Assembly (NCBI RefSeq): GCF_001904745.1
Contig: NZ_MRCD01000098.1
Location: 1 to 33,031, forward strand
Length of the DNA: 33,031 bases
Origin: Calothrix sp. HK-06
Lineage (GTDB): Bacteria; Cyanobacteriota; Cyanobacteriia; Cyanobacteriales; Nostocaceae
Direction of reading: 5' to 3'
Below are positions 17,445 through 29,412 of this stretch, one piece after another. Within the stretch, counting starts at the first letter, position 1; each line of letters begins with the position of its first letter. The position numbers and the translations under genes were made by a program. Under the pieces are notes generated by a model. The model saw only the letters and a list, made by a program, of their open reading frames with translations. It made no database searches and had not been told where the DNA came from.

Positions 17445-17465
17445 GTCGAGCCATAAATTTGTTAA

Positions 17466-17882
17466 TTAGTCAAACACGTACTTTTCAGCAACTTTCCAGT
17501 AACGTGAGAAGCGCTTGAGGTCGATGTAACCGTCGTAGTCAAAGAAGGGGTCTACCTCAAACACTTCTAGTTCAAGGCTTTTTTCAATTTCATCACAAAT
17601 CTTGTTAAACCGAGGACTGGGACTATCTGTGGTGACAACTTGAGTAGCGTTGTTTTCTTTGGCAAATGCTAAAACTTCTTTTGCTACGTCACCACGCCGA
17701 ATAGTAACAGGTAATTCCAGCAAGCATTCGTAAATAAACGTAATACGCTTGAGACTAATTTGCCATTCATCAAGTAAAGCATCATCCCATACCCAGATAG
17801 CAGGGGCGCCTGGGTATTCTTCGAGTGCAGGGTTTTTGGGACTGAGACAGTCACCGTTTACCCAGATTATTGGTTTTGCCAT
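17466..17882 (-). CDS. Stand-alone photolyase N-terminal-domain protein
   Basis: A 138-residue protein resembling the alpha/beta N-terminal domain of photolyases and cryptochromes: IIWVNGDCLSPKNPAL at the start, AIWVWDDALLDEW, then the diagnostic LPVTIRRGDVAKEVLAFAKE and ATQVVTTDSPSPR. The FAD-binding domain is absent from this protein. A separate gene with only the FAD-binding domain lies at 22968-23819 on the same strand, so the two may form a split photolyase or cryptochrome-like pair, now separated by the 18191-22866 block (inference). The ATG at 17882 matches the domain start. Confidence 0.78.
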   Translation of the reverse strand: MAKPIIWVNGDCLSPKNPALEEYPGAPAIWVWDDALLDEWQISLKRITFIYECLLELPVTIRRGDVAKEVLAFAKENNATQVVTTDSPSPRFNKICDEIEKSLELEVFEVDPFFDYDGYIDLKRFSRYWKVAEKYVFD

Positions 17883-18190
17883 GAGGTCAGTTGAATAATT
17901 GCTACCAGGGTGTTATTGAATTTTAAGCTTAGTGAAAATAAAGTTCAACGGCGCCTAAAAGTGATTATTAAGCAATTATAAAAATTATGTAATTTTTCGG
18001 ATTCAATTTGTATTTGATACTCGTTATGATGTAACTATAAGAAATGTAAAGAGTCAAATATTAAATTTAAATTTAATTTAGTACAAAATAACTTATTTTA
18101 CATTAAATTTTCTGGTTTAGAGAATAATAAATTCGATATTTTAGTAGCATCAATTAATTCATATGTATTACAAAAACAAAAATTAAGGGT
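17883..18190. other. AT-rich left flank of the defence block
   Basis: No gene is seen. One GGCGCC at about 17950 marks native-looking DNA; from about 17990 on the sequence is very AT-rich, like the operon that follows. It should carry the promoter of that operon. I looked for att-like direct repeats shared with 22867-22967 and found only a short AATTTGTAT match, which is not convincing. Confidence 0.5.
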
Positions 18191-20194
18191 ATGGCATCTA
18201 TCAAAAATTTTTCTGGTCAAGATATTATTAGCCAAATAAATAGTAATTACTGAAGTGGAAAATCAGATTTAGGTAAAGATTTTTTTTCTTCTTGCTTGAA
18301 GTACTGTAATAGATACAGACGCGCAGTTGGTTATTTTTCAAGTGGAGCTTTAATTGTTTGGTCAGGGGCGCTCGAAGAAATATTAGCAGATGATGTTAAA
18401 ATTCAGTTAATTATATCTCCTAATTTATCAATTGAAGATAAAGAAGCTTTACAGCGAGCTTTGGATGAAGCCGAAAGGCAAAAGTTGCAACAGACTATTG
18501 CTGATAAAATTATTACAGATGCTTTAAATAGCCCAGAAAAGCTTAATACTGCTGATGTGAGATTAGAGTTATTAGCTTGGTTAGTAGCTAACGAACGGTT
18601 GATTATTCGCTTCGCATTTCCTGAGCATGTGGAAGATGCTGGTATTTTCCATGAGAAAATAGGTATTTTTGATTTTCCTTGGGGAGACACTATTGCATTT
18701 ACTGGTTCTGCAAATGAGTCAAGCATGGGTCACAGTAGAAATTATGAATCAATTGATGTTTACCGTAGCTGGTTGAGTGCAGATAAAGAACGAGTCAAAA
18801 CAAAAGAAGATGAGTTTGAAGAAGCTTGGGCAGGTCAAGCACAAGGGCTAAAAGTTATACCTCTTTCAGAAGAGACAATTCAATTAATAAAAATCAATGC
18901 TCCTACTAAAAAACCAGCTATTTCATCGAAGAATAAAACCATTACTCCCCCGAACTCTAGAAATAAAGTATTAGAGCCAAAAGTTCATGAAGAAAAGTGG
19001 CACCATCAAGACGAAGCGGTAGAAAACTTTTTGCAGGTAGGACATGGTGTTTTAGAAATGGCTACTGGTACAGGTAAAACACGTACTACAACTAAAATAC
19101 TAAGTCGCCTAAATGATGAGGGAAAGCTAGATGCAATTATTATTAGTACTGAAGGAACAGACTTACTTGAACAGTGGACTAGAGAAATTGAACCTTGGTC
19201 TATTAGGTGCCCTAAGCCATTTCGAGTTTTAAAGCATTATGCTGCACATCATCAATTAGAAAGCTTTGTTAATAATTGCAAAGGAGCAGTGCTTATTGTC
19301 TCAAGAGAAAAGCTTGCATCTTTATTTAAAAGGCTTGCAATTGAAAAACGAAAACGAATAATTATTGTACATGATGAAGTACATGGCTTAGGTAGTCCAG
19401 CACTTCGCCAATCTCTAGCTGGTCAACATCAAACTTTTGGGTATCGATTAGGGTTAAGTGCAACTCCTGAAAGAGAATACGATATAGAAGGAACCCAGTT
19501 TATTTTTCAAGAATTAGGAAATGTAGTTTTTCAATTTGGATTAGAAGATGCAATAAAACAAGGTATACTTTGTGAGTTTGATTATATTCCTCTATATTAC
19601 CAATTAAGAGAGAACGACAAGCAAAGGCTTAGGCAAGTTTACAATAAACAAAGTGCGCGCGCACAAGCAGAAAATCCAATGAGCCAAACAGAAATTTGGA
19701 TAGAACTTGCACGTGTTTACAAAACTGCTGAACAAAAGCCAGATATATTCGCTAGTTTCTTGCGTGACTACTCTCAATATGTTCGTTCGACAATTATTTT
19801 TGTTGACAATCAAGAATATGGCTTTAAACTCTTAGAAACTATTCATAATTATACATATAAATATCGTACCTATTATGCTGAAGACGACAGAGCAAATCTA
19901 GTAGAATTCGCGAATGGTAATATCGATTGTTTAATAACTTGTCATAGAATTTCACAGGGTATCGATATTCAAAACCTTCAAAATGTTATACTGTTCTCAT
20001 CATCTCGTGCCAGATTAGAAACGATTCAGCGAATAGATCGTTGTTTGCGCGTTAATCCAAATTTTCCAGAAAAAAAGGCTACGGTTATTGACTTTGTTTT
20101 ACAATCAGAACCTAATGAAGATAAGGATATAATTAGCGCTGACGAAGAACGTTATCTCTGGTTATCAGAACTTTCAAATACTAGGAGAAAATAA
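18191..20194 (+). CDS. PLD-nuclease / SF2 helicase fusion, in-frame TGA at codon 21
   Basis: First gene of the putative defence operon. From the ATG at 18191 (AAGGG just upstream) the frame runs 20 codons to a TGA at 18251, then continues SGKSDLGKDFFSSCLKYC with no break into the main protein. The uninterrupted part from a TTG at 18296 encodes 632 residues; positions below count from it. A phospholipase D-type nuclease domain comes first, with H119-x-K121 and GSAN at 137-140. A superfamily 2 helicase follows: Walker A ATGTGKT (256-262), DEVH box (360-363), SAT (388-390) and a late QRIDRCLR motif. This architecture is known from several prokaryotic defence loci. Either the TGA inactivates the gene, or translation restarts or reads through. 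TTG 18296 has no Shine-Dalgarno. Confidence 0.85.
18251..18253 (+). other. In-frame TGA inside the helicase frame
   Basis: The TGA separates 20 codons that begin at a good ATG/Shine-Dalgarno from a segment that is plainly protein-like and in the same frame. No in-frame ATG or GTG follows before the conserved YRRAVGYFSSGAL region, only a TTG at 18296. Confidence 0.75.
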
Positions 20195-20199
20195 TACCA

Positions 20200-20391
20200 A
20201 TGTCACTAGACCCAGAAGTTATTCAAGCTATTAAAGATACGGTTAGAGAAGAAAAACAACCGGAAACTGTTGCCAATAGGTTAATAGCTTGGTTGAGAGA
20301 AATGTGTAATTCATCATTAAGTTTAGAGGAACACAGTGTATACATTGAAACAGTTCGTAAAGCAATTATTGTAAATGATACTGAGGATTAG
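20200..20391 (+). CDS. Small protein associated with the CxC ATPase
   Basis: A 63-residue acidic, helical protein (MSLDPEVIQAIKDTVREEKQ ... VANRLIAWLREM ... SVYIETVRKAI). It begins 5 bases after the helicase stop and ends 2 bases before the ATPase start, so all three are cotranscribed. Its size and place suggest an adaptor or assembly subunit for the ATPase. From memory, and unverified, public databases carry a family name for small proteins tied to CxC-motif ATPases in DNA-modification-type systems, which would fit. No catalytic motif is seen. Confidence 0.72.
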   Translation: MSLDPEVIQAIKDTVREEKQPETVANRLIAWLREMCNSSLSLEEHSVYIETVRKAIIVNDTED

Positions 20392-20393
20392 TT

Positions 20394-22370
20394 ATGAAAA
20401 TAGAAATTATTGGTTGGAGAAGTGAAGGTTTACGATGTCCAGATGTAGAAATTAACCTTCTAAAAGCAAATAATAAACCTGCTCGTGTTACGTTGATCCA
20501 AATGCCAAATGGTACTGGCAAAACTACTACGTTAACAATGATACGAGCAGCTTTAACAGGTGAAGCAAGAACTTGGACTAAAAATCAAATTCTAGATTTG
20601 CGTAGACCCGGTGATGATAACTCAAAAGCTTTTTTTATATTAAACCTAAGAATTGACGATAAACCTTTAACCTTTGAAGTGGAACTTGATTTTGAAACAT
20701 GTACAGCAAAGTACCGTACTACGGCGCCTGGAAGTGGTGGTATTAAAGAAGGTTGGAAACCACCAAGCAGCGTTATGATGTTCTTAAGTGATAAATTTAT
20801 ACCACTATTTATCTTTGATGGAGAATATGCGAATGATTTATTAGACCATAACAAATCAGAAGCTTCGCAAGCGATAGATGCCCTATTTCAATTATATTTA
20901 CTAGAAGAAATCAAGAATATAGCTCAAAAGGGCTGGGATGAAAGCACAAAAAATAAATCCAATTCTAGTATAGCTTTGACAAAAAGGGAAAACAGAGTTA
21001 CTAGCCTGAAAAGAAGGATTATAGCAGTTGAGACTGAAAAAAATCAATTAGAAAAAAAATTAACAAACCTGGAGTCAGAAATTCTTAATTTAGAACAAAA
21101 AATTAATGATAATATTAGTAAGACTACAGAAGTGAGCGACAAATACCAAATTGCAAGAGATAAAGAATCGGAAGCGACAAATAGCGTTCGTAATTCTGCT
21201 AATAACTTGATGAATTTACTTCGTAAACCTCATGCTTTACATGAAGCATTTTCAAATTCTCTTTTAGAATTAAGAAATCAGTTAGACAAGTTAAAACTCC
21301 CAGCAAGTACATCTCGACAGTTTTTTTTAGAATTATTAGAAGAACCAGACTGTATTTGTGGGCGCCCACTTAACGAAATCACTCGCAACATCATAAATAA
21401 ACGCGCAAGTTCATATCTTGCGGAAGATACTTCCGGTTTCTTAAATGCTCTTAAAACTAATATTGCGAATCAGTTAACAGATACTTCTAAAGATTATAAT
21501 AAACAGTTGATTAATTCAGTAGAAAAACTCAAAAATAACATCATCTCAAGAGATTTAGCAATTACCGAAGTCAATACTTTAAAAAGAATATTAATTGAAC
21601 AAGGTAATGAGGAACTTAAACAATGGCAGCAATCTATAGATGAAAAAAAGCAAGAATTTGACAAGGTATCAAGTAAATTAAAGGAAATTAAACGTCCTCA
21701 GAGTGTAGTAGATAGAGATTCAGATACTCAAATATGTTTACAAGCATTGAACAAGTTTCTTAGAGATGCAGAAATAGATCTGGCAGATATTACTAAAACC
21801 AGAGATTTGTATAAAAGAACAGAGATACTTAAAAGTATAATTGATAAATCTTTACAAAAATCTCGTGAAAATTTACGTATATCAATTGTTAAAGATTGTA
21901 ATAAGAGGTTGGAAAAAGTTTTATATCAAGACCCTATTCGGATTAAAGAAGTAGACCGTTCATTAAAATTACTTAATCAAACTAGTGGAAGTGCAGGACA
22001 AGTACTATCTGTAGGTTACATATTTTTAACAACACTTTTGAATAGAGGGCAACATCAATTTCCGTTAGTAGTAGATAGCCCTGCAAACCCTATTTCTATT
22101 GCAGTAAGAAGGCAGATTGGGAGATTAATTCCTTCTCTTTGTAACCAGTTTGTTGCTTTTACTATTTCTTCTGAAAGACAAGGTTTTACAGAATCTATAT
22201 ATACTAATTGCCCAGATGATATTAAGCTCATAACTTTATTTAGGAAAACAAATGGAACAAATAATTTAATAAATACACTACCAAAACATGGTGTCACTAT
22301 CAATGCAAATGCAGTACTTGTAGAAGGTAAAGAATATTTTGATAGTTTTGATTTAAAAGAAGATATTTGA
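20394..22370 (+). CDS. SMC/DndD-like ATPase with CxC hook
   Basis: A 658-residue ATPase of the Rad50/SMC/DndD type. Walker A is PNGTGKTT (38-45). FIFDGEYANDLL follows at about 139-150, in the region where DndD proteins have a similar FDGE segment. A coiled coil runs from about 190 to 300; at its tip is C320-I-C322-GRPL, a reduced zinc-hook-like CxC motif. A second coiled coil runs about 360-520. The signature helix is SGSAGQVLSVGY (531-542) and Walker B is PLVVDSP (557-563), with serine where many ABC ATPases have the catalytic glutamate. Such ATPases usually sense or bridge DNA and license a partner nuclease, here presumably the PLD-helicase. Confidence 0.85.
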   Translation: MKIEIIGWRSEGLRCPDVEINLLKANNKPARVTLIQMPNGTGKTTTLTMIRAALTGEARTWTKNQILDLRRPGDDNSKAFFILNLRIDDKPLTFEVELDFETCTAKYRTTAPGSGGIKEGWKPPSSVMMFLSDKFIPLFIFDGEYANDLLDHNKSEASQAIDALFQLYLLEEIKNIAQKGWDESTKNKSNSSIALTKRENRVTSLKRRIIAVETEKNQLEKKLTNLESEILNLEQKINDNISKTTEVSDKYQIARDKESEATNSVRNSANNLMNLLRKPHALHEAFSNSLLELRNQLDKLKLPASTSRQFFLELLEEPDCICGRPLNEITRNIINKRASSYLAEDTSGFLNALKTNIANQLTDTSKDYNKQLINSVEKLKNNIISRDLAITEVNTLKRILIEQGNEELKQWQQSIDEKKQEFDKVSSKLKEIKRPQSVVDRDSDTQICLQALNKFLRDAEIDLADITKTRDLYKRTEILKSIIDKSLQKSRENLRISIVKDCNKRLEKVLYQDPIRIKEVDRSLKLLNQTSGSAGQVLSVGYIFLTTLLNRGQHQFPLVVDSPANPISIAVRRQIGRLIPSLCNQFVAFTISSERQGFTESIYTNCPDDIKLITLFRKTNGTNNLINTLPKHGVTINANAVLVEGKEYFDSFDLKEDI

Positions 22371-22383
22371 TAACTGGGTAAAC

Positions 22384-22866
22384 ATGTCTAGATTTTTTAG
22401 ATTACGTCAAGATGCGGAAAGCTGGTTCTCTAATATATTTGAAAAACCAATTGAGACTAAGTTTGATATTTATTATTTTTGTTTGATGCTAGGTTTAGCA
22501 ACAGGCAGATATAGTAAGAATAAAGAAGGCACAGAGTTCATAGATTACTTTATTGCTGATTATGCTTCTTACCAAACCTTAATTATTGGACTGCTTGTTA
22601 TAACAGAATTAAATAAAAGAGGAATTGGTATCAAAGAAAGAAATGAAATCAGTAGCCTTTTTAAAGAGTTTATTGATACAGCAACAAGGACTAATCTTAC
22701 TGATGAGGCTATAGATAAGTTGAATGGATATGCTAGCGGTGGTTATGAATACCTTACAGAGAAAATTGATACTAAACCGTATCATGTTGAAGAGTTTCTA
22801 ATTACATACTACAATTTATTCAATGAAGCTATAGAAAATAATCCACAATGGTTATCTAGCGTTTAA
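22384..22866 (+). CDS. Unknown protein, last gene of the defence operon
   Basis: A 160-residue protein I cannot assign. It begins 13 bases after the ATPase stop and shares the AT-rich codon use of the operon. It is predicted mostly helical, with FDIYYFCLMLGLATGRYSKNKEG as the most distinctive stretch, IADYASYQTLIIGLLVITEL (hydrophobic but probably a buried helix), and a C-terminal half rich in Tyr and acidic residues. No enzyme motif is visible. By position it is a core component of the system. Possible roles are DNA binding, target recognition or toxin/effector control. Confidence 0.65.
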   Translation: MSRFFRLRQDAESWFSNIFEKPIETKFDIYYFCLMLGLATGRYSKNKEGTEFIDYFIADYASYQTLIIGLLVITELNKRGIGIKERNEISSLFKEFIDTATRTNLTDEAIDKLNGYASGGYEYLTEKIDTKPYHVEEFLITYYNLFNEAIENNPQWLSSV

Positions 22867-22883
22867 GATTATTTTCAAGCTCT

Positions 22884-22909
22884 AAATTTGTATGTATTAT
22901 TACAAATTT
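22884..22909 (+). terminator. AT-rich stem-loop after the defence operon
   Basis: AAATTTGTA (22884-22892) pairs exactly with TACAAATTT (22901-22909) across an 8-base loop, 17 bases past the last stop of the operon. The stem is weak and the downstream T-rich run is poor. A GC-rich palindromic repeat at about 22934-22955 follows, before the convergent minus gene, and may do the actual terminating. Confidence 0.4.
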
Positions 22910-22967
22910 ACGAATGAGATAATTATTTTGAAGGACAGGCAGGCCGCCTATCCTACAAGAATTTGAT

Positions 22968-23819
22968 TTACTTTCTGCGTTTGCCTTTTTGCCAGCTTTG
23001 GCTGTTGTCTTTTTTGACGAATTCACCTTTGGGAAATAGTTTGGCTTCTAGTTTTTCGTAGCTGCCTTCAAAGTCGCATTTTCCGTAGAGTGGGCATTTT
23101 TTGCAGTAGACTCCTTCGGTGTAGCGCTCTAGGTTTTCGCGGTTGAAGAAGTAGGGTTTGTGGCTGAAGGTGCTGGCTACCCATTGCCAGGACATGTTAT
23201 TACTTGCTGGGTCGCCATCTAATAGGTGTTCGAGGAACCATTTTGTGCCTTCTTGCCAACGAACTCGGCGCCAGTGAACGATATAGGCAGCTAACCACAT
23301 TCGCATATGGTTATGTAAATAGCCAATTTCTCGGAGGTCACGACTAAAACTATCTATACATACGAGTCCAGTTGTACCTTCGCGGATGTCTTGAGGTAAT
23401 TCTGTGGCGTATTCCGAAGCACTATATCCGGTTTTATATTCTTCTTGGTCTTTCCAGATACCGTCACCTAGTTTCATGTAAAGTCTTTGCCAGTAGTCAC
23501 GCCAGCCTAATTCGTTGACAAATTTAGCCGCTTCGTCTTGGTTGCGAATTTTACTAAAAGCAAAATCTCTGGCTTCGCGTAACCCTAATACGCCGTAGCG
23601 AATGTAAGGGGACAAACGAGTTACGGCGCCTGTTAAAAAGTTACGTGATTTTGCGTACTTAACGGGGTCAACTTTTTGAAGTGCTGCCACTGCTGCTTGG
23701 CGCCCACCAATAATTTGACTAATATGGTCGTCGCGTTCTGCTGCTTCAGGAAATTGCTTTTTTAAATATGTCCCCAACTCTTCGCGGTTAGCAAAGTCGC
23801 GTCGCATGTCGTTAGTCAT
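22968..23819 (-). CDS. Photolyase/cryptochrome FAD-binding-domain protein
   Basis: A 283-residue protein matching only the helical FAD-binding half of photolyases: LSPYIRYGVLGLREA, FVNELGWRDYWQRLY, the flavin-contact region YLHNHMRMWLAAYIVHWRRV, and LDGDPASNNMSWQWVASTFS with PYFFNREN. These are the most conserved parts of the domain. The N-terminal antenna-binding domain is missing and may be supplied by the 17466-17882 protein. A C-terminal CKKCPLYGKC cluster (three cysteines) could bind a metal, but falls one short of a standard FeS set. Repair activity cannot be judged from this. Confidence 0.85.
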   Translation of the reverse strand: MTNDMRRDFANREELGTYLKKQFPEAAERDDHISQIIGGRQAAVAALQKVDPVKYAKSRNFLTGAVTRLSPYIRYGVLGLREARDFAFSKIRNQDEAAKFVNELGWRDYWQRLYMKLGDGIWKDQEEYKTGYSASEYATELPQDIREGTTGLVCIDSFSRDLREIGYLHNHMRMWLAAYIVHWRRVRWQEGTKWFLEHLLDGDPASNNMSWQWVASTFSHKPYFFNRENLERYTEGVYCKKCPLYGKCDFEGSYEKLEAKLFPKGEFVKKDNSQSWQKGKRRK

Positions 23820-23913
23820 TAGTTAGTAGATTGGTGTGTAAGTCGTATTTAGAGTAAACTATAAGTATTGTTCGGCTAAGTTAGTTATATTTTTTACCAA
23901 TAATGATAAAAAT

Positions 23914-28167: not shown

Positions 28168-29412
28168 CTATTTTTGGTCGAGACGAGTAGCTTGTTCGAT
28201 GGCAGCTTTTTCTTTTGCCCTACGTGCGAGTGGTTGTAGTTGTGTAATAGTACAAGCTGTTAGAATGCTCAAATTTTCTAAACTCATACCCCGCATTAAC
28301 ATTTCAATGCGCCAAGTTTGCTGTGCTTGATTAATTAATGGCGCCCCTTCGGGTGTTAAAATTTCTTGCGTCCATTTTTCCCACCGTTGTTGTATATTTA
28401 ATTGTGATGCAGGCGCCCCAGTTTCATTTAAAAACATTGCAGTTTCATCATCTTTACGACTTTTGAGCCATTTAGTTAAAGGATTGTTATTATACGAACC
28501 GTAGCGTTTACCCATTATCCATTGATTAACAGGTACTTGACGGGTAGATTCGTGAGTAATGATTTGGAGTATATGAGCTTGGGTATCATAGATTTCGTGT
28601 ATACGTTGCAAGCTGACTATTTCATCAACAGATAAACCCGCTGCGAATAGTAGATATGCCAAAGCATAATCTTGTAATCCTGTTTTTTTGGCTTGCTGTA
28701 AAATTTGGTGGACTAAGTTTGCTGGTAAGTCCGCGATTTCTCTACTCATAGCTCCAGTTGAGCTAGTCTTAACAATACTCATGGAAACACTATTAACAGA
28801 AGTCGTTGATTTGGACATGGCGCCATTTAAAAATAGATTTACCGCATTATCTATAAATGTGTCTCGCTCCCAAAGTTCGCTTTGTTCAGTTGTAATAGTG
28901 AATTTTGTAACGGCATATCCCAAAATAACTACATTGAGTAAACAAGCAATAGTTTCTGGTGAGAAATTTGTACTTAAATTTTCTTGCTCGATTAGACTAG
29001 CTAAATACTGTCCCATAGTTTGATTAACGTGCGCTAAACCGTGCCCTAATGCGCGACGATTTTCAATTGGGTACTGACTTGCTTCCCCCACCAATGACCG
29101 TATCAGCTCTGGTACACGTTCCAATGCAAGTAACACTTTATTCACATATTCTCTGAGAACTTGATAAGTATCCTCAGAAGGACTTGTGGGCAGTACAAGC
29201 GATTCTCCCAAACTTTCAAAGGCGCCAGATTCCTCAATTAACGCCAAAACTAGCCCGTGTTTATTCCCAAACTGCCGAAATAGCGTCACCTCATTAACTT
29301 CCGCTAACTCAGCTATTTGTCGAGTCGTAGTATTCGTTACTCCTTGAGCAACAAACAATTCAAGTGCTGCTTGCACAATCCGCCGACGGGTAGAACTAGT
29401 GTGAGACACCAT
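28168..29412 (-). CDS. TetR regulator fused to dead tyrosine-recombinase domain
   Basis: A 414-residue protein. Residues 8-55 are a TetR helix-turn-helix (TTTRQIAELAEVNEVTLFRQFG) and about 56-200 its helical ligand domain. After a linker, 225-400 follow the pattern of a tyrosine-recombinase catalytic domain: LQDYALAYLLFAAGLSVDEI, RQVPVNQW, NPLTKWL, MFLNETGAP, then TWRIEMLMRGMSLENLSIL. The catalytic residues appear lost: the first arginine is S (AAGLSVDEI), the HxxR position is NQAQ, and no tyrosine ends the domain. So it probably binds DNA or dimerises without recombining. It is divergent from desC, with two TGCAAGT-type palindromes between, and likely represses desC and itself. Confidence 0.8.
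   Translation of the reverse strand: MVSHTSSTRRRIVQAALELFVAQGVTNTTTRQIAELAEVNEVTLFRQFGNKHGLVLALIEESGAFESLGESLVLPTSPSEDTYQVLREYVNKVLLALERVPELIRSLVGEASQYPIENRRALGHGLAHVNQTMGQYLASLIEQENLSTNFSPETIACLLNVVILGYAVTKFTITTEQSELWERDTFIDNAVNLFLNGAMSKSTTSVNSVSMSIVKTSSTGAMSREIADLPANLVHQILQQAKKTGLQDYALAYLLFAAGLSVDEIVSLQRIHEIYDTQAHILQIITHESTRQVPVNQWIMGKRYGSYNNNPLTKWLKSRKDDETAMFLNETGAPASQLNIQQRWEKWTQEILTPEGAPLINQAQQTWRIEMLMRGMSLENLSILTACTITQLQPLARRAKEKAAIEQATRLDQK

What the first reader, a model, noticed from the sequence alone, without database searches (positions are those of the whole stretch)
18191..22866. Four-gene PLD-helicase / small protein / CxC SMC-ATPase / unknown operon, a candidate defence system
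Four plus-strand genes with gaps of 5, 2 and 13 bases encode a PLD nuclease-SF2 helicase, a 63-residue protein, a DndD/Rad50-like ATPase with CxC at its coiled-coil tip, and a 160-residue unknown. Nuclease/helicase plus SMC-like ATPase is a recurring theme of anti-phage systems (DISARM, Dnd-type restriction, Lamassu), but this exact set is not one I can name with confidence. No modification enzyme lies in the operon, so self/non-self discrimination must come from DNA ends, structure or a distant partner.
Basis: partly seen in the sequence, partly recalled or inferred. Interest (0 to 1): 0.88.

Follow-up and report, generated by a model that had tools for sequence, protein, structure and literature searches.

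The report
Accessory PbeABCD anti-virus operon in cyanobacterium
The four genes are a member of an already described anti-virus system (PbeABCD) that works with sulfur marks on DNA; here it sits alone in a variable genome site, its likely mark-making genes lie elsewhere in the same genome, and its first gene looks damaged.

Summary
The operon is real and nameable. Gene 1 is PbeA (PADLOC, 830 bits), the 63-residue protein is Pfam Sp-CxC (PbeB), the ATPase is a CxC-type PbeC (70 bits), and the 160-residue protein is PbeD by position and homology. PbeABCD gave PT-dependent virus resistance in haloarchaea (Xiong 2019) and was re-read as the CxC ABC-ATPase system (Rakesh 2024). So: a new member of a known kind.

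What the tools add:
(1) PT genes dndC, D, E lie on another contig of the same genome; but dndC is in 93 of 105 sampled genomes of the order, so a partner is available, not proven.
(2) The operon is an insert in 2 of 7 genomes of the genus, at a variable site between two photolyase-like genes.
(3) pbeA has an in-frame TGA at codon 21 and Asp in helicase motif VI where 23 of 23 other aligned sequences have Gly; a congener's copy is uninterrupted.
(4) The genome's dnd locus has its own Pbe-like cassette whose helicase lacks the PLD nuclease, as in 89 of 91 family members over cut-off in the phylum sample.

Novel reading left open: nuclease-bearing Pbe islands plug into a resident, nuclease-stripped PT system.

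The parts
18191..20194 (+). pbeA: PLD (HKD) nuclease + SF2 helicase; interrupted by an in-frame TGA at codon 21; remaining open frame 18296-20194 (TTG start, 632 aa)
   Evidence: PADLOC PbeA PDLC02703 829.8 bits; Pfam PLDc_2, ResIII, Helicase_C; stop; uninterrupted relative of 669 aa in G431
18251..18253 (+). in-frame TGA, codon 21 of pbeA, in a segment conserved in relatives
18650..18658 (+). HxK (HEK) of the single HKD (PLD) active site
   Evidence: HxK in 18 of 18 PLD-bearing PbeA aligned, window included; codons checked
20036..20038 (+). Asp codon in helicase motif VI, where 23 of 23 other aligned sequences have Gly
20200..20391 (+). pbeB: 63-aa small protein, Pfam Sp-CxC PF20304
   Evidence: 43.5 bits, cut-off 27.5; 81% identical in G431
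20394..22370 (+). pbeC: CxC-type ABC ATPase, 658 aa
   Evidence: PADLOC PbeC 70.5 bits, DndD 46.9 bits; CxC in 17 of 17 PbeC-type and 0 of 3 DndD proteins aligned
21351..21359 (+). CxC (CIC) of PbeC, residues 320-322
22384..22866 (+). pbeD: 160-aa protein, fourth gene of the cassette
   Evidence: no PADLOC or Pfam hit and only a below-cut-off NCBIfam hit; homologous to the fourth gene of other Pbe cassettes; DndE relationship not confirmed here
17957..22975 (.). extent of the insert relative to the congener with the shortest site (G434, 46 bases between the aligned flanks)
17466..17882 (-). left flanking gene: photolyase N-domain-like, 138 aa
   Evidence: Pfam DNA_photolyase 23.0 bits, below the 26.6 cut-off
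22968..23819 (-). right flanking gene: photolyase FAD-binding domain protein, 283 aa
   Evidence: Pfam FAD_binding_7 87.8 bits; present in 7 of 7 genomes of the genus

Best explanation
It is a PbeABCD (CxC ABC-ATPase) cassette that arrived as an accessory insert. It most likely depends on phosphorothioate marks that the host's own dnd genes, on another contig, put on its DNA. PbeC with PbeD and PbeB would form the DNA-engaging ATPase complex that checks sites for the mark, and PbeA would be the motor with an HKD nuclease domain that blocks or cuts incoming unmarked DNA. The copy in this genome is probably inactive or weakened because pbeA carries a stop codon and a change in helicase motif VI; a congener has an uninterrupted version at the same site. 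Shown here: family identity, gene order, the insertion, the presence of dnd genes, the lesions in the assembled sequence. Inferred: PT dependence in this organism, complex formation, self/non-self logic, loss of activity.
For: PADLOC PbeA 829.8 bits over almost the whole model, and PbeC. Pfam Sp-CxC. CxC in 17 of 17 PbeC-type against 0 of 3 DndD. The five plasmid relatives of the same subtype (PbeA 38-48% identical, H1-H5) all lie beside dndC, dndD and dndE (annotation; H3 by blastp), and the same five records are the only plasmids with a PbeC match at E <= 1e-10. Own genome: DndC 694 bits, DndD 683 and DndE 129 bits over their cut-offs, DndB-like only 72 bits (cut-off 328). Insert present in G000 and G431, absent from the five other genomes of the genus. 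dN/dS between G000 and G431: 0.15-0.39 for the four genes, so selected for most of their shared history. PT dependence of PbeABCD in haloarchaea: PMC6459918 (passages).
Against: dndC is in 93 of 105 sampled genomes of the order (42 of 43 of the family; counted), so its presence together with an unlinked Pbe is expected anyway and does not prove pairing. PbeC scores are modest and PbeD has no family hit. A DndE relationship of PbeD was not seen by profile comparison (probability 0.3%), and its structure prediction was too poor to use (pLDDT 50.5). G070 has a PLD-bearing PbeA and no dndC found. Pseudanabaena plasmid H6, a more distant relative, shows no dndC in the stretch opened. Xiong 2019 saw no cleavage of viral DNA and some residual resistance without pbeA, whereas Rakesh 2024 argues that cleavage occurs, so the effector step is disputed.
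Confidence: 0.68

Rival explanations
1. PbeABCD here works independently of phosphorothioation, pairing with a methylation mark or with no mark at all.
For: Xiong 2019 found 320 of 553 PbeAC without dndCD within 10 kb, 155 of them near base-modifying genes (passages). Of 13 genomes of the phylum sample with a full-length PLD-bearing PbeA, G070 had no dndC found and G170 only a broken one. A dnd-associated methyltransferase-like gene does lie at the dnd locus on C67.
Against: No methyltransferase among the 20 window proteins outside the operon that were scanned with Pfam (not every frame was scanned). Relatives of the same subtype lie beside dnd genes in 5 of 5 plasmid records and in G197 and G367.
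Confidence: 0.15
2. The pbeA lesions are assembly errors, or the protein from the TTG at 18296 still works, so the system is fully active in this strain.
For: The rest of the frame is open for 632 codons with dN/dS 0.17 against G431, so any lesion is recent. The part lost with a TTG start is about 35 residues ahead of the conserved PLD core.
Against: Two unusual features in one gene, a stop and a non-Gly residue in motif VI against 23 of 23, make error less likely (inference; no reads were available).
Confidence: 0.3
3. It is a DNA repair or chromosome maintenance operon rather than defence.
For: The helicase part has XPB/Rad25 structures as nearest solved relatives, and the ATPase resembles Rad50/SMC in layout.
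Against: Patchy distribution (2 of 7 genomes of the genus), low G+C (0.33 against 0.39), variable site, and membership in a tested antiviral family.
Confidence: 0.03

Closest known systems
DndCDEA-PbeABCD antiviral system of haloarchaea (Xiong et al. 2019, PMC6459918, passages)
   Same: Four genes: PLD-helicase, small protein, ATPase, ~150-aa protein (there 66 and 152 aa for B and D, here 63 and 160)
   Different: Here not beside dnd genes; dnd is on another contig; first gene interrupted
CxC ABC-ATPase-DndE systems (Rakesh et al. 2024, PMC10853773, passages)
   Same: CxC motif, HKD+SF2 PbeA, small protein SP
   Different: The DndE identity of the fourth protein was not recovered here by profile comparison
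Resident dnd-linked cassette: TIGR04095 helicase, small protein, CxC ATPase, dnd_assoc_4 (same genome, contigs C27/C67)
   Same: Same four-part logic, CxC ATPase
   Different: Helicase has no PLD domain (503 aa); near dndC-D-E; different subclade
DndFGH (DptFGH) PT-dependent restriction
   Same: Would also use a PT mark
   Different: Different proteins; none of the four matches it in PADLOC
Lamassu (LmuB)
   Same: Weak coiled-coil ATPase similarity (43 bits)
   Different: No LmuA among the hits; PbeA present

Membership tests
PbeABCD | PbeA: PLD/HKD nuclease domain fused to SF2 helicase, family-level match | tested here: met
   PADLOC PbeA 829.8 bits, Pfam PLDc_2 + ResIII + Helicase_C; gene interrupted at codon 21 in this copy
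PbeABCD | PbeB: small protein between A and C | tested here: met
   Pfam Sp-CxC above cut-off; position
PbeABCD | PbeC: ABC ATPase with coiled coil and CxC | tested here: met
   PADLOC PbeC 70.5 bits; CxC aligned with 16 other PbeC-type proteins
PbeABCD | PbeD: fourth protein, proposed DndE cognate | tested here: inconclusive
   Homologous to the fourth gene of other cassettes (29-48% identity in the five plasmid relatives), but hhalign to DndE 0.3% and no usable fold
PbeABCD | Gene order A-B-C-D in one operon | tested here: met
   same order in G431, G367 (A cut by contig end) and four annotated plasmid records
PbeABCD | PT modification genes in the genome | tested here: met
   DndC, DndD, DndE over cut-off on contig C67
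PbeABCD | PT modification genes adjacent | tested here: not met
   none of the 20 other window proteins scanned is a dnd gene, and the genome's single DndC match is on contig C67; adjacency is not required by Xiong 2019, where 320 of 553 are solitary
PbeABCD | PT-dependent virus resistance | not testable with these tools
   needs a phage challenge
DndFGH restriction module | DptF/G/H proteins | tested here: not met
   no such hit among the four proteins; a DptF search of G000 and G431 found nothing but its controls were silent too, so absence from the genome is not shown
Lamassu | LmuA effector with LmuB | tested here: not met
   weak LmuB similarity of the ATPase only; no LmuA among the hits of the four proteins
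DISARM | Drm proteins | tested here: not met
   no Drm family among the PADLOC hits of the four proteins

The most novel reading that the evidence does not exclude
In this order of cyanobacteria the inherited phosphorothioation genes travel with a Pbe-like cassette whose helicase lost its HKD nuclease, probably once, turning it into a mark-reading motor without a cutter. Nuclease-bearing PbeABCD islands such as this one then act as exchangeable effectors that plug into the resident marks in trans, so that modification is ancestral and restriction is acquired and lost.
Probability: 0.3. Interest if true: 0.62.

Novelty: new member of a known kind. Interest (0 to 1): 0.4.

Why it matters
Xiong 2019 left open whether "solitary" PbeABCD cassettes are dead or paired with another mark. 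Here six nuclease-bearing cassettes not seen beside dndC (G000, G431, G387, G312, G253, G357) lie in genomes that encode dndC elsewhere (in G387 the contig ends 4.7 kb from pbeA on one side), so a 10-kb neighbourhood rule can call systems solitary that need not be. Also, the protein that NCBIfam names "DNA phosphorothioation system restriction enzyme" (TIGR04095) has no room for the PLD nuclease domain in 89 of 91 genomes over its cut-off in this phylum sample. If the novel reading held, it would help explain how an old, vertically inherited modification system (Jian 2021, PMC8569181, passages) persists in lineages reported to lack dndFGH.

Tried and rejected
Genome-contig scan with PbeA: only two weak Bacteroidales matches, no use. 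Viral-contig scan: no relative. Structure of PbeD from a single sequence: pLDDT 50.5, so no fold search was run. Profile comparisons: PbeD against DndE, no; PbeD against dnd_assoc_4, weak, probability 17.9%; dnd_assoc_4 against DndE, no. PDB sequence search with the PbeD profile: nothing; with PbeC: nothing. DptF search of G000 and G431: nothing, but no control rang, so not counted as absence. Promoter and terminator scan: 20 promoter-like sites against 22.5 in shuffles, 3 terminator-like against 1.9; not used.

Considered and dropped: that the insert substitutes for an HNH nuclease which some congeners have in their dnd locus. In the genus the HNH gene lies about 3 kb from dndC in G433, G434 and G436, and not near dndC in G000, G431, G432 and G435; the Pbe insert is in 2 of these 4 and 0 of those 3. 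But G197, G116, G193, G312 and G170 have an HNH-like gene near dndC (broken in G170) and a PLD-bearing PbeA, so there is no exclusion. Also dropped: the Fisher test of PLD-bearing PbeA against dndC (7 of 13 against 87 of 373, p = 0.019), because both are concentrated in one order. The Fisher test of TIGR04095 against dndC suffers from the same shared ancestry.

Rows left out before counts: from the PbeA hits, "full-length PLD-bearing" kept 13 genomes (set named by hand) and left out fragments (G367, G296, G105, G255 contig C4), hits to other long frames matched only over the PLD part (G280, G368, G093, G064, G072, G048, G155, G153), and all helicase-only hits. From, seven genomes matched below the cut-off (G094, G365, G081, G349, G159, G054, G385) and are not in the 91. 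The phylum searches scored only the best 3 or 4 candidates a genome.
Full report
1. Observation. One search lists four plus-strand frames at 18296..20194, 20200..20391, 20394..22370 and 22384..22866, with gaps of 5, 2 and 13 bases, as stated. The stated start of gene 1, 18191, is an ATG, but its frame is broken by a TGA at 18251-18253, codon 21. The first in-frame start codon after it is TTG 18296. In congener G431 the same gene is one open frame of 669 codons. G+C is 0.33 in 18191-22866 against 0.39 in the rest of the window.

2. Identity. PADLOC gives gene 1 as PbeA at 829.8 bits, residues 2-610 of the open part, and gene 3 as PbeC (70.5 bits) ahead of DndD (46.9) and LmuB (43.0). Pfam gives the 63-residue protein as PF20304 Sp-CxC, [quoted passage not shown], above cut-off. 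Gene 4 has no PADLOC or Pfam hit and only a far-below-cut-off NCBIfam hit. HxK of the single HKD site is present in 18 of 18 PLD-bearing PbeA sequences aligned, GSxN in 17 of 18 (G197 differs). CxC is in 17 of 17 PbeC-type ATPases and 0 of 3 DndD aligned.

3. Literature (passages only). Xiong et al. 2019 (PMC6459918) describe pbeABCD beside dndCDEA in Haloterrigena jeotgali A29: about 10^4-fold protection against virus SNJ1, all four pbe genes needed (with low-level resistance left without pbeA), loss of protection without PT, replication block without visible cleavage, PbeB and PbeD of 66 and 152 aa, and 320 of 553 PbeAC without dndCD within 10 kb. Rakesh et al. 2024 (PMC10853773) identify PbeA as HKD nuclease + SF2 helicase, PbeB as a small disordered protein, PbeC as the CxC ABC ATPase and PbeD as a DndE cognate, argue for cleavage, and note independent occurrence of these systems and diverse nucleases (HNH among them) at dnd loci. 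A 2025 review (PMC12707154) reports both views. The window operon is thus a known kind of system.

4. Relatives. Among plasmids, 13 records match PbeA at E <= 1e-40; I opened 6 of 13. The five closest (Rhizobium twice, Methylobacterium, Halorubrum, Priestia; 38-48% identity) carry the cassette beside dndC, dndD and dndE (annotation; own blastp for the unannotated Methylobacterium record). The sixth, Pseudanabaena (29%), has no dndC in the stretch shown. The same five records, and no others, match PbeC at E <= 1e-10. RefSeq names the small protein "CxC ATPase DNA modification system associated small protein" in three of them. In the phylum, G197 (L056) has PbeA of this subtype, a PbeC frame matching only the C-terminal part, and PbeD within about 7 kb of dndC; G367 (L068) has PbeA (cut by the contig end), B, C, D beside DndD- and DndE-like genes, though no dndC was found in that genome.

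5. Insertion site. The flanking minus-strand genes are a photolyase-like N-domain protein (Pfam below cut-off) and an FAD_binding_7 protein; the latter is in 7 of 7 genomes of the genus. In G431 the window region 17461-23832 aligns as one piece at 87.6% DNA identity, cassette included. The five other genomes have no pbeA at E <= 1e-40, and between the aligned flanks they hold 46 (G434), 512 (G432), 1114 (G436), 1317 (G435) and 2724 (G433) bases, with a ParE-like protein above cut-off in G435, a PIN-like protein below cut-off in G433, and unknowns in G436. The left boundary falls at window base 17955 or 17956 in four of the five and at 17983 in the fifth; the right boundary varies from 22924 to 22976. 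This is a variable site; no integrase or target duplication was identified.

6. Decay. Besides the TGA, the window PbeA has Asp in motif VI where all 23 other aligned sequences (18 Pbe-type, 5 resident-type) have Gly. dN/dS against G431 is 0.17 (pbeA, from 18296), 0.39 (pbeB, 63 codons), 0.22 (pbeC), 0.15 (pbeD); seven flanking genes give 0.04-0.25. The cassette has thus been under selection for most of the time since the lineages split, and the lesions are recent, unless they are sequencing errors, which cannot be told here.

7. Self/non-self partner. The genome has one DndC match (694 bits), on contig C67, with DndD (683 bits), DndE (129), two DGQHR proteins (one DndB-like, 72 bits, far below the DndB cut-off) and a dnd-associated methyltransferase-like protein (688 bits). 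In front of them on C67 lie a 72-aa small protein, a second CxC ATPase and dnd_assoc_4; near the end of contig C27 lies a 503-aa helicase (TIGR04095, 674 bits). G431 has all these in one continuous locus, proteins 89-98% identical, so C27 and C67 are most likely neighbours. dndC is in 7 of 7 genomes of the genus, the window-type cassette in 2 of 7.

8. The resident cassette lacks the nuclease. In 386 genomes of the phylum TIGR04095 passes its cut-off in 91; in 89 of 91 the open frame is 550 aa or less, which leaves no room for the PLD domain, and in 2 of 91 (G193, G170) it is over 700 aa. dndC passes in 94 of 386; 88 genomes have both, 3 only the helicase, 6 only dndC. Against a simple "one locus" view: helicase and dndC lie within 25 kb in only 27 of the 87 short-frame genomes with dndC; in 26 they are on one contig but further apart, in 34 on different contigs. 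In the six loci opened where they are linked (L084-L087, L098, L099) small protein, CxC ATPase and dnd_assoc_4 stand between them; L088 (G312) has dndC without them. In the genus the PLD-less helicase is in 7 of 7. On a helicase-domain tree of 24 sequences the five PLD-less ones included form one clade (99/100) nested among PLD-bearing ones, next to the PLD-bearing G387 (86/93); one change suffices (the tool warned of long branches elsewhere in the tree). Some dnd loci have an HNH_2 endonuclease gene (L086, L087, L088); G000 has no match to it at E <= 1e-10. ProPhylo (PMC3226654; passages) had named TIGR04095 a second PT-dependent restriction enzyme. Jian et al. 2021 (PMC8569181; passages) reported vertical inheritance of dnd in Cyanobacteriales and absence of dndFGH in Nostocales; 'pbe' does not occur in its main text. 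The searches (listings, plus the passages named) showed no mention of the missing nuclease domain, which is not proof that it is unreported.

9. Pairing in trans. Of 13 of 386 genomes with a full-length PLD-bearing PbeA, 7 have dndC over cut-off. G094, G081 and G349 have beside it a cysteine desulfurase, a 1214-aa protein, a DUF4007 protein and a PAPS reductase, an Ssp-like set by my recall; G365 shows only the desulfurase and part of the long protein before its contig ends, with a PAPS reductase-like match on another contig. G170 has only a broken dndC, and G070 none found. These four Ssp-like genomes and G367 showed no PF00124 match. Outside that sample G431 and G387 also have PbeA and dndC. 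In G000, G431, G387, G312, G253 and G357 the cassette is not seen beside dndC. Because 93 of 105 sampled genomes of the order have dndC, this shows that a partner is available, not that it is used.

10. Mechanism. Most likely: PbeC/PbeD/PbeB load on DNA and test sites for PT; PbeA, recruited or triggered on unmarked DNA, translocates and cuts or stalls replication. Known from the tested member: need for all genes, PT dependence, replication block. Inferred here: that the Dnd proteins of C67 make the mark, that the complex forms in this organism, and that the present copy is weak or inactive.

11. Verdict. A member of a known system, interesting for its unlinked state, its site, its recent damage, and for the nuclease-less resident cassette that came to light beside it.

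Noticed in passing
L077:379-1890 and L034:173-11037 (G000 contigs C27, C67); L084-L087, L098, L099: Resident dnd-linked cassette whose TIGR04095 helicase lacks room for the PLD nuclease domain in 89 of 91 genomes over cut-off, although NCBIfam calls it a restriction enzyme.
   Followed up: partly
L064:5840-18305, L066:5733-18187, L071:5245-17794, partly L065: In small genomes of the phylum without PF00124 a Pbe cassette lies beside a cysteine desulfurase, a 1214-aa protein, a DUF4007 protein and a PAPS reductase, which looks like the Ssp modification set (Ssp naming recalled): Pbe with a non-Dnd PT system.
   Followed up: partly
window 17466-17882 and 22968-23819: Photolyase-like protein encoded as two separate genes, FAD-binding part upstream and N-domain-like part downstream; the site between them is variable in the genus.
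   Followed up: partly
L086:9595-10572, L087:7185-8126, L088:9113-10063, L099:7930-8868: HNH_2 endonuclease gene (the L099 copy by 58% identity only) present in some dnd loci and absent from others of the same genus.
   Followed up: partly
L080:16425-18263: A GmrSD-type protein (GmrSD_N and GmrSD_C) directly downstream of pbeD in the Methylobacterium record, between Pbe and Dnd genes.
   Followed up: no
window 28168-29412: Protein with a TetR_N domain and a phage integrase domain (the latter below its cut-off) in one frame.
   Followed up: no
H14, H15 (MT835506.1, MT835493.1): Two unannotated phage records from faecal samples match PbeA over 94-97% of its length at 27-28% identity.
   Followed up: no
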